NCBI RefSeq assembly: GCF_000972385.1
Contig: NZ_JXTE01000035.1
Span: forward strand, 1 to 64,000
Direction of reading: 5' to 3'
Length of the DNA stretch: 64,000 bases
DNA from: Streptomyces sp. WM6386
GTDB lineage: Bacteria > Actinomycetota > Actinomycetes > Streptomycetales > Streptomycetaceae
The translations under genes were made by a program, and so were the position numbers. Below the pieces are notes generated by a model. That model did not search any database. It was not told the origin of the DNA and saw only the letters and a list, made by a program, of their open reading frames with translations. This document shows, piece after piece, positions 7,696-9,604 of the stretch. How positions within the stretch are numbered: position 1 is the first letter of the stretch; each line of letters begins with the position of its first letter.

Positions 7696-8886
7696 CTACC
7701 ACATGACCGGCAGCCGCTCCGGGATCCGCTTCATGAACCCCGTCCGCCACACCAGTTGCTCGACCGGCACGGCGAGAGCCAGCCGGGGCATGCGTTCCAG
7801 CAGCACCGACAGGGCGATCTCGGCGTGGCTGCGGCCCAGCGCCGTGGCGGGGCAGTAGTGCCGGCCGCCGCCGAAGGAGAGGTGCGCGGCGCTGTCGGCG
7901 CGGTCGAGGTCGACGGTGTGCGGGTCGGGGAAGGCGGCCGGGTCGAAGTTCGCGCCCTCGACCAGCACCAGCACCAGTTCGCCCGCCACCACCTGCACGT
8001 CCCCGAGGACCACATCCTCCAGCGCCAGCCTCGGCAGCCCGTCCCCGATGGACAGATTGATCCGCAGCAGCTCCTCCACGGCCGCCGGAATCCGCCCGGG
8101 GTCCGCGACCAGTTCGGCCTGGAGCCCGGGGTGCTGGATCAGCGCCAGCAGGGCCATGGTCAGGAACCCGGCGGTGGAGATGACGCCCGCCCCGAACATC
8201 GTGACGCCGACCGTCGCGAGCATCTCGTCGCTGAGGTGCGCGTAGTCGGGGTCCGTGCGCAGGGCCGCCAGCTCGGCCATCAGGCCCGTCGTCGCCGGGT
8301 CGTCCAGCCGTTCGGTCATGTACGCGATGTCGCGGTCCCAGTTGAGCCGGGCGCCCGTGACCGGACAGGCGGAGTTCATGAACGCGATGTCCAGGCTCCG
8401 CATCAGCCTCGGCGCGTCCTCCCGCGGGATGCCGAGGATCCGGCAGTGCATGCCGGCCGAGTACGGATCGGCGAAGCCGGCCCGCAGGTCGGCCGGGGCG
8501 CCCTCGCGGCCGAGACCGTCGACGAGCTGAGCGGCGTAGGACCGCATCCAGTCCACCAGCCCGGGGGACTTCGGATTGAGGGCCTTCAGTACGGCCTTCC
8601 GCAGCCCGGCGCCCGTGATGTTCCCCATGTTGTTGACGACCTCGGGCGGGATCGTCAGCGCGTACTGGCGGGGCACACCCGGCGCCGAGGTGTCCTTCAG
8701 GCTGAACCGCGGGTCTTCGAGGACCTGCTTGCACAGGTCGTACGACGACACCAGCCAGGCCTCGTCGCCGGCGATGGTGCGGACCCGGCGGACGGGGGAG
8801 GACTCGCGCAACTCCTCGACCTCCGAGGGGAGCCGGTCGCCGCGCCAGGTGAACGGGAAGTCGATGAGGGTCTCAGCGGACGTCAA
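7696..8886 (-). CDS. Cytochrome P450, CYP121-type (cyclodipeptide cross-linking)
   Basis: This 396-residue P450 has the heme-binding loop FGGGRHYCPATALG with Cys345, an ExxR (EELLR) and an I-helix FGAGVISTAGF in which Ser237 stands where many P450s have an acid-alcohol pair. The length, Cys345 and Ser237 agree with M. tuberculosis CYP121A1 as I recall it. So do long shared blocks such as PPEVVNNMGNI, GLPRLA, GELVLVL, EGANFDP and LAVPVEQLVWRT. CYP121 couples the two tyrosine rings of cyclo(L-Tyr-L-Tyr) to give mycocyclosin. Its start overlaps the synthase stop by 14 nt, so they form one translational unit. The product here is inferred, not shown. Confidence 0.93.
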   Translation of the reverse strand: MTSAETLIDFPFTWRGDRLPSEVEELRESSPVRRVRTIAGDEAWLVSSYDLCKQVLEDPRFSLKDTSAPGVPRQYALTIPPEVVNNMGNITGAGLRKAVLKALNPKSPGLVDWMRSYAAQLVDGLGREGAPADLRAGFADPYSAGMHCRILGIPREDAPRLMRSLDIAFMNSACPVTGARLNWDRDIAYMTERLDDPATTGLMAELAALRTDPDYAHLSDEMLATVGVTMFGAGVISTAGFLTMALLALIQHPGLQAELVADPGRIPAAVEELLRINLSIGDGLPRLALEDVVLGDVQVVAGELVLVLVEGANFDPAAFPDPHTVDLDRADSAAHLSFGGGRHYCPATALGRSHAEIALSVLLERMPRLALAVPVEQLVWRTGFMKRIPERLPVMW

Positions 8887-9604
8887 CGTGCACCTCCTGC
8901 GCCGGCGTGACGATCGCGTGGCCCTGGTTGCGCGAGGCGCGCAGACCCGCGCCGGGCGCGTACAGCAGCTCGGCCATCGGCAGGAGCTGGTGGTAGCAGT
9001 TCAGGGAGGACGGCACGCCCAGGATGGCCGGGGTGTCCAGGAAGAGCGGGGCCTCGGCGCAGACGTACGCCATGCAGACCTCGCGCTGGGCCTCGGTGAC
9101 GCTCTCCGCCTTGCCGGCGAGGAAGGTGCCGACGAGCTGTTCGCAGGTCGTGCGGAACTCCTCGTCGGTGCCGAGGCGGGCGGTGAGGTGCTCGTGCAGG
9201 TCGCGGTACGCCGCATTGACGCGGAAGTCCGACATGGCGTGGGCCCGTAGACGGGTGCCGCCGGGGTCGACGGCCCGGACGGCGCCCAGCACCTTGGCCC
9301 GAACGCCGCGCAGGTTCTTCACCGCCTTGCGGCGCGCGTCGTCGGCCGGATAGCCGGAGGCCTCGTACATCTCGGCCACATGCAGATCGGTGTGGACGAA
9401 GTCCACCCGCTCGAAGTGGGCGAGCCCCCAGCGGGCCAGGTCCAGGACCCGGCGGGCGGAGAAGTAGCTGTTGCCGGGGGAGACGCCGATGACGGCGTGG
9501 TCGCCGGCGCTGCGGATGACCTCGCAGTGGGGGGTGAAGGGCCGTACCTCGAAGAGGTCGGTGGGGGTGACGTGCTGGATCTCTGAGACGGTCACAGTCG
9601 TCAA
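8873..9604 (-). CDS. Cyclodipeptide synthase, Rv2275-like (predicted cyclo(Tyr-Tyr))
   Basis: The 243-residue protein carries both CDPS signatures. HAVIGVSPGNSYF holds the nucleophilic Ser42, and YVCAEAPLFLDTP holds Tyr180 and Glu184. CDPSs hijack two aminoacyl-tRNAs: the first aminoacyl group is parked on the serine and the second closes the diketopiperazine. Blocks such as RRKAVKN, RGVRAK, GVPSSLNCYHQ and GLRASRNQGHAIVTP match Rv2275, which makes cyclo(L-Tyr-L-Tyr). The start is TTG at 9604 with GAAGGA about 10 nt upstream; that site sits inside a small inverted repeat (GAAGGA-GAG-TCCTTC). GTG three codons in is an alternative. It is first in a two-gene operon with the P450. Confidence 0.93.
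   Translation of the reverse strand: MTTVTVSEIQHVTPTDLFEVRPFTPHCEVIRSAGDHAVIGVSPGNSYFSARRVLDLARWGLAHFERVDFVHTDLHVAEMYEASGYPADDARRKAVKNLRGVRAKVLGAVRAVDPGGTRLRAHAMSDFRVNAAYRDLHEHLTARLGTDEEFRTTCEQLVGTFLAGKAESVTEAQREVCMAYVCAEAPLFLDTPAILGVPSSLNCYHQLLPMAELLYAPGAGLRASRNQGHAIVTPAQEVHVDVR

What the first reader, a model, noticed from the sequence alone, without database searches (positions are those of the whole stretch)
7696..9604. Mycocyclosin-type cyclodipeptide synthase/CYP121 pair in a Streptomyces core locus
The CDPS carries both active-site signatures (Ser42; Tyr180/Glu184) and long blocks identical in type to Rv2275. The coupled P450 keeps Cys345, Ser237 and the substrate-loop text of CYP121A1. 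CYP121-like enzymes are best known from M. tuberculosis, where they are essential. A matching two-gene operon in Streptomyces, beside ask-asd, predicts production of cyclo(Tyr-Tyr) and a cross-linked product. Residues near the C-terminus (RTGFMKR versus the arginine-richer Mtb segment, from memory) differ and could shift the chemistry.
Basis: partly seen in the sequence, partly recalled or inferred. Interest (0 to 1): 0.85.

Follow-up and report, generated by a model that had tools for sequence, protein, structure and literature searches.

The report
Known-type cyclodityrosine gene pair
This soil bacterium carries a two-gene unit that very probably joins two tyrosines into a ring and then cross-links that ring or couples it to a DNA-type base; such "gym" pairs are already known from Streptomyces, so the find is mostly ordinary, though it suggests where the matching tuberculosis enzyme came from.

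Summary
In detail: a cyclodipeptide synthase (CDPS, 8873-9604, minus) overlaps a P450 (7696-8886, minus) by 14 nt. The CDPS has the cyclo(Tyr-Tyr) pocket motif of Rv2275 and passes the NCBIfam "cyclodityrosine synthase" cut-off. The P450 is CYP121-like, but its closest solved relative is GymB1 (78%), not M. tuberculosis CYP121 (62%). This is a "gym" locus, a pair already described as widespread in Streptomyces; six expressed pairs gave mycocyclosin plus guanine/hypoxanthine adducts. Best reading: a dual-function gym pair. The site is not core: pair and promoter-like element sit between a two-component regulator and ask, and 5 of 15 inspected pair-less congeners have the regulator directly beside ask. 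New here: (i) 82-83 of 83 gym-type P450s share seven residues that all differ from M. tuberculosis CYP121; (ii) mycobacterial CYP121 and its CDPS group with Nocardia and Longimycelium pairs inside the gym clade (AU p 0.034, 0.023 and 0.025 for P450 and concatenation; 0.075, not significant, for the CDPS alone), so mycobacterial mycocyclosin synthase probably descends from a gym-type ancestor. Nothing was tested at the bench.

The parts
8873..9604 (-). Cyclodipeptide synthase of the NYH cYY group (GymA-like; cyclodityrosine synthase), 243 aa
   Evidence: NCBIfam NF052540 409.6 bits vs cut-off 300; PF16715; 144 of 226 residues as in Rv2275; P1 motif VGVTMLFN identical to Rv2275 and to tabulated cYY synthases
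7696..8886 (-). Cytochrome P450 of the CYP121/GymB family, 396 aa, gym-type active site; AGGAGG ribosome site 6 nt before the TTG start, 14-nt overlap with the CDPS
   Evidence: 78% to GymB1 (8q6z), 70% to 8q6x, 62% to CYP121; signature residues; trees
9674..9703 (-). Promoter-like element TTGACG-N18-TAACTT, 99 bases before the CDPS start; likely promoter of the pair (inferred)
   Evidence: Pattern present in 18 of 19 regulator-linked upstream regions (window included) and 17 of 61 others, all but one at -97 to -103; 5 of 950 mononucleotide shuffles. The generic sigma-70 scan did not report it.
7664..9735 (-). Approximate extent of the inserted two-gene cassette relative to empty sites
   Evidence: Regulator-side homology to five empty sites ends at 7651-7663 in 3 and at 7635-7640 in 2; ask-side homology begins at 9733-9772. 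A multiple alignment suggests weak similarity from about 9708, so the edges are approximate.
6946..7635 (-). OmpR/PhoB-type response regulator next to the pair, same strand; context gene, not part of the cassette
   Evidence: PF00072 and PF00486; directly beside ask in 5 of 15 pair-less genomes
5561..6949 (-). Sensor histidine kinase, partner of the regulator; context gene
   Evidence: HAMP, HisKA, HATPase_c
9880..11157 (+). Aspartate kinase (ask), divergent from the pair; context gene
   Evidence: NF005153 763.1 bits vs cut-off 585

Best explanation
A gym-type biosynthetic pair, a new member of a known kind. The CDPS takes two tyrosyl-tRNAs and makes cyclo(Tyr-Tyr) through an acyl-enzyme on Ser42, with cYA and cYF as likely side products. 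The P450 then oxidises cYY, by radical chemistry as proposed for CYP121, and either closes the intramolecular C-C bond (mycocyclosin) or couples the activated ring to free guanine or hypoxanthine (guatyromycines A and B). The two genes are probably translationally coupled and read from a promoter of their own about 100 bp upstream of the CDPS. They sit as a roughly 2.1-kb insert between a two-component regulator and ask. Shown by computation: gene identity, pocket motif, family placement, active-site signature, empty site. Inferred: the products, the promoter, the coupling and the mechanism (taken from characterised relatives).
For: CDPS: P1 VGVTMLFN equals Rv2275 and tabulated cYY synthases; the four characterised Streptomyces/Streptacidiphilus enzymes of this group make 58-71% cYY in E. 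coli (PMC5816076, passages); NF052540 above cut-off. P450: nearest solved chain is GymB1; L62/Y74/I78/I280 in 83 of 83 and A347/M385/K386 in 82 of 83 gym-type rows (one gap), window, GymB1 and 8q6x included. Literature: six gym pairs gave mycocyclosin and guatyromycines A and B in S. albus (PMC10092475, passages); title of the primary paper seen in a reference list. All 80 fetched relatives have CDPS and P450 side by side. One CDPS match at E up to 0.001 in the own genome; the next P450 is 33% identical.
Against: No product measured. The primary gym paper is not held, so which strains were the six, and whether any lies in the window's clade, is unknown; GymB1 is in another subclade. Equal residues in GymB1 and the window make shared chemistry likely, not certain. 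Only six of seven P2 positions could be compared.
Confidence: 0.85

Rival explanations
1. Strict mycocyclosin pair: the P450 only closes the intramolecular C-C bond, as reported for M. tuberculosis CYP121.
For: Same CDPS P1 pocket; 62% identity to CYP121; V82, V83, N85, F168, W182, A233 and S237 identical.
Against: GymB1 is closer (78%), and the window has the gym residue, not the M. tuberculosis residue, at 62, 74, 78, 280, 347, 385 and 386; the trees put it away from the mycobacterial branch.
Confidence: 0.1
2. The CDPS makes another main product (cYA, cYF or a Trp-containing ring) and the P450 acts on that.
For: Characterised relatives also make 11-29% each of cYA and cYF; related pairs with a tryptophan-type CDPS pocket exist in the genus.
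Against: The window's P1 motif is the tyrosine one, with Asn at the position said to select Tyr; tryptophan-type pairs have LGVALFF[AS]-like motifs and W/Y276-I385-K386 P450s, which the window lacks.
Confidence: 0.04
3. The pair is a decayed, non-functional insert.
For: Some relatives look broken: the CDPS match changes frame at residue 135 in G160; L028 and L056 have altered or short CDPS frames.
Against: In the window both frames are full length, catalytic residues intact, ribosome site present and promoter-like element conserved.
Confidence: 0.03

Closest known systems
gym locus (GymA CDPS + GymB P450; GymB1 = PDB 8q6z; 8q6x/8q6y, deposited only as 'Cytochrome P450', probably another GymB)
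   Same: Two-gene CDPS-P450 unit in Streptomyces; 78% P450 identity; identical seven-residue signature; cYY-type CDPS
   Different: Window belongs to another subclade, placed between a two-component regulator and ask; products not measured
Rv2275-Rv2276 (cYY synthase and CYP121, M. tuberculosis)
   Same: Same two-gene pathway, same CDPS P1 motif, Cys345, Ser237, W182 and N85
   Different: 64% (CDPS) and 62% (P450) identity; seven residues in or near the active site differ; the mycobacterial pair sits on its own long branch inside the gym clade
9o4d ('Cytochrome P450 121') and PtmB (8yxt), nearest solved relatives of P450s paired with tryptophan-type CDPSs
   Same: Same wider CYP121-like family; CDPS-P450 pairs in the genus
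   Different: The genus pairs nearest to them have W or Y at 276 and I385 (9o4d also reads RWNLS and FIKR; PtmB's residues were not printed), CDPS P1 motif LGVALFF[AS]-like, and lie outside gym plus CYP121 in the trees

Membership tests
cYY-specific NYH cyclodipeptide synthase | Catalytic Ser/Tyr/Glu and the NYH signature | tested here: met
   Ser42, Tyr180, Glu184; Asn45, Tyr204, His205 align with AlbC N40, Y202, H203
cYY-specific NYH cyclodipeptide synthase | P1 pocket V-G-[VI]-T-M-L-F-N and P2 L-x-[FY]-x-Q-L-P | tested here: met
   VGVTMLFN; L-T-F-(gap)-Q-L-P, one P2 position falling in an alignment gap, against Table 2 of PMC5816076. Pocket positions recalled, partly confirmed by that paper's text.
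cYY-specific NYH cyclodipeptide synthase | cYY is the main product | not testable with these tools
   Needs expression
GymB (gym-type P450) | Closest characterised relative is a GymB protein; paired with a cYY CDPS | tested here: met
   GymB1 78%, next 8q6x 70%, CYP121 62%
GymB (gym-type P450) | Shared L62/Y74/I78/I280/A347/M385/K386 (signature derived here, not from a paper) | tested here: met
   83 of 83 rows at four sites, 82 of 83 (one gap) at three
GymB (gym-type P450) | Makes both mycocyclosin and nucleobase adducts | not testable with these tools
   Needs expression
CYP121A (mycobacterial mycocyclosin synthase) | Groups with mycobacterial CYP121 rather than gym P450s | tested here: not met
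   Window in a Streptomyces gym clade; the four mycobacterial rows form a separate 100/100 clade
CYP121A (mycobacterial mycocyclosin synthase) | Gln385-Arg386 in the substrate pocket (pocket role recalled) | tested here: not met
   Met385-Lys386 in the window; 3 of 4 mycobacterial rows have Q-R, the fourth A-R

The most novel reading that the evidence does not exclude
The mycobacterial mycocyclosin synthase pair (Rv2275-CYP121 lineage) is a derived offshoot of the dual-function gym family: an ancestor that could couple cYY to purines passed to mycobacteria, near the Nocardia/Longimycelium gym pairs, and changes at 62, 74, 280, 347, 385 and 386 narrowed it to mycocyclosin. Corollary: nucleobase coupling may be the older function, and the residue signature predicts which CYP121 relatives can still do it. 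Separately, the window's pair moves between genomic places as a cassette with its own promoter.
Probability: 0.4. Interest if true: 0.5.

Novelty: new member of a known kind. Interest (0 to 1): 0.27.

Why it matters
For the window itself the value is annotation: a confident gym locus, in a subclade for which I found no characterised member, and a clear insertion site. The wider point is a residue signature that separates gym-type from mycobacterial P450s, and a tree that makes the mycobacterial enzyme the derived one. If nucleobase coupling is ancestral, the role of mycocyclosin in mycobacteria, which PMC6469627 calls unknown, could be approached from the Streptomyces pairs.

Tried and rejected
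Rejected: 'core locus'; 'strict CYP121 orthologue'; tryptophan-type pair. No terminator of note after the P450: one weak hairpin at 7664-7677, against 0.5 expected for the region scanned. The generic promoter scan found nothing in 7400-9900; the TTGACG-N18-TAACTT element was noticed by eye in the alignment and then counted, so its shuffle control is post hoc and uses mononucleotide shuffles. Paper searches for 'GymB1' (0 papers), cyclo-L-Tyr-L-Tyr with hypoxanthine, crystal structure and P450 (0) and CYP121 with Nocardia and horizontal gene transfer (0) led nowhere; of the 20 papers listed one was relevant and already seen. I do not claim that the nesting of CYP121 is unpublished: only bear on it, and the primary gym paper could not be read. 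No structure was predicted, since a solved relative at 78% exists. In one search the position homologous to the window's P450 start is not a start codon in most relatives, so the 14-nt overlap is a fact about the window, not a conserved coordinate. The rows 8q6x, L109 and L110 (long branches) changed place between the trees; they and L108 were left out, and they are not.

Full report
OBSERVATION. The window has two overlapping minus-strand genes at exactly the stated place: a 243-aa CDPS (8873-9604) and a 396-aa P450 (7696-8886). Ser42, Tyr180 and Glu184 of the CDPS match the catalytic residues of AlbC and Rv2275. Cys345 and Ser237 of the P450 match CYP121. The P450 start codon is preceded by AGGAGG (sequence), so the genes are probably translationally coupled. 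The genome held (9.2 Mb, 856 contigs) gives one CDPS match at E up to 0.001, and its next-best P450 match is 33% identical.

CDPS. phmmer against the PDB puts Rv2275 first (312.5 bits), then AlbC (134.7 bits); 144 of 226 aligned residues match Rv2275. NCBIfam NF052540, cyclodityrosine synthase, scores 409.6 against a cut-off of 300. The P1 pocket reads VGVTMLFN, as in Rv2275 and in cYY rows of Table 2 of PMC5816076 (section 11 read); six comparable P2 positions read L-T-F-Q-L-P, the seventh lies in a gap. Pocket positions were recalled; the paper's text confirms position 65 as third and AlbC L200/Rv2275 N251 as eighth, but names 119 as fourth where my order has it fifth. In that paper the four characterised Streptomyces/Streptacidiphilus cYY enzymes made 58-71% cYY with 11-29% each of cYA and cYF (passages).

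P450. The nearest solved chains are GymB1 8q6z (78.2% over 395 columns), 8q6x (69.8% over 391) and CYP121 1n40 (62.0% over 395). The gym locus is known: a review (PMC10092475, passages) describes a widely distributed Streptomyces cdps-p450 locus, six of whose pairs gave mycocyclosin, guatyromycine A (guanine on the phenolic hydroxyl) and guatyromycine B (hypoxanthine at its ortho position) in S. albus. The primary paper's title, seen in a reference list, speaks of widely distributed bifunctional P450s. That GymB1 of the PDB is one of those six is inferred from the name. Earlier, CYP121 homologues were reported in 176 of 721 CDPS clusters (PMC5767969, passages).

ACTIVE-SITE SIGNATURE. In the genome-contig scan with the window CDPS 91 stretches encoded a relative and the best 80 loci were kept; all 80 have an adjacent P450. 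These 80, the window, GymB1 and 8q6x make 83 rows. Against CYP121, all 83 have L62, Y74, I78 and I280, and 82 of 83 (one gap) have A347, M385 and K386, where M. tuberculosis has M, N, V, F and G, Q, R. The sample is biased toward the window's relatives because the scan used peptides of its CDPS and kept only the best 80. So not every site is a clean divider. A third class, 11 pairs fetched from the genus (one of them also as L095), has I385-K386 with W276 (Y in one); its CDPSs carry tryptophan-type P1 motifs (LGVALFF[AS], one LEVALFFS), and its P450, tested for one of the 11 (L102), is nearest to 9o4d and then PtmB. So positions 276/385/386 of the P450 go with the CDPS pocket type.

PHYLOGENY. 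In a 58-row P450 tree the window falls in a Streptomyces clade whose eight members all lie beside ask, and CYP121 with three mycobacterial rows groups with Nocardia and Longimycelium inside the gym clade (100/99). With third-class pairs as outgroup and 47 rows, holding the gym rows together without the mycobacteria costs 20.3 log units, AU p 0.034. Leaving out ten columns, the signature among them, and four rows (8q6x, L108, L109, L110) gives p 0.023 for the P450; the CDPS alone also joins the four mycobacterial rows to three gym rows (100/98), Nocardia nearest, but with p 0.075 the alternative is not rejected. A concatenation with 33 gym rows (22 of them not), the same 4 mycobacterial and 7 outgroup loci, gives p 0.025 and 100/100 for mycobacteria + Nocardia + Longimycelium. 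The grouping was first named, the key rows are the same in all trees, the mycobacterial branch is long (about 0.5), and backbone forks are weakly supported, so I hold this at moderate confidence. It implies that the mycobacterial pair derives from gym-type ancestors; that these ancestors had nucleobase coupling is an inference from the characterised GymB proteins.

LOCATION AND MOBILITY. ask lies within the fetched flank in 20 of 80 loci, and the regulator (80% or more identity) in 19 of 80; some of the other loci are cut by contig ends. From 24 genomes searched for ask, 21 of them without the pair, I fetched 15 pair-less and 3 pair-bearing regions. In 5 of the 15 pair-less regions the regulator starts 188-322 bp from ask; in the other 10 it was not found in the 4 kb upstream; in the 3 pair-bearing regions the pair lies between regulator and ask. 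Homology to the five empty sites ends at 7635-7663 on the regulator side and resumes at 9733-9772 on the ask side, so roughly 2.1 kb is extra. Two other loci (L033, L058) have the pair beside ask without the regulator and lie elsewhere in the tree, so the site was either used twice or the neighbourhood was rearranged. Insertion is favoured over loss because the pair with its upstream element recurs at other places, but loss from the five is not excluded.

PROMOTER. TTGACG-N18-TAACTT lies 99 bases before the CDPS start (9674-9703, minus). The pattern TTGACN-N16-19-TANNNT occurs in the 300 bases upstream in 18 of 19 regulator-linked loci (window included; the miss, L008, has its contig end there) and in 17 of 61 others (L033 and L058 are among the 44 misses), 15 of these 17 with TAACTT at -97 to -102 and two (L078 at -90, L080 at -103) with a variant; L028 was dropped because its match starts late. 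Starts in the other loci are placed by homology. Shuffles: 5 of 950. The element's recurrence at other genomic places at the same distance suggests that it travels with the genes; the 44 loci without it show that it is not universal.

PREVALENCE. Of 295 genomes of the genus, own included, 101 have some CDPS match (E up to 0.001), 54 have a full-length match of 60% or more, and 10 one of 80% or more (the last two counted by hand from the table). Of 396 genomes drawn across the phylum, 4 have a P450 match at E up to 1e-100, own included; of 118 in the genus of G441, 3. In these P450 searches only 4 and at most 16 candidates per genome were scored, so the counts may be low.

VERDICT. Ordinary but real: a gym-type pair. 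The mechanism is that of known relatives; the open and more interesting part is the direction of evolution between the gym family and mycobacterial CYP121.

Noticed in passing
G160:C321:38023-38758; L028; L056: Some relatives have broken or altered CDPS genes: the match changes frame at residue 135 in G160, L028 lacks the aligned catalytic Ser, L056 has a short frame. Decay or sequencing error; only described.
   Followed up: no
L098-L108: A third class of CDPS-P450 pairs in the genus with tryptophan-type CDPS pockets and W/Y276-I385-K386 P450s; the one tested is nearest to PDB 9o4d (deposited as 'Cytochrome P450 121') and PtmB.
   Followed up: partly
L033, L058: Pair beside ask but without the regulator-kinase genes, in a different part of the tree: possibly a second, independent arrival at ask.
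   Followed up: partly
window 3364-4506 (+): NB-ARC/AAA ATPase frame of 381 aa; its C-terminal part reads to my eye like out-of-frame sequence, so the gene may be broken or frameshifted.
   Followed up: no
window 5089-5595 (+): Small protein with a signal-like N-terminus and a CaMKII-AD/SnoaL-like domain, convergent with the histidine kinase; found beside it in 19 of 19 regulator-linked loci and 4 of 5 empty sites (the fifth region ends before it).
   Followed up: no
window 46418-48922 (-): Sulfate permease fused to a carbonic anhydrase domain, 835 aa.
   Followed up: no
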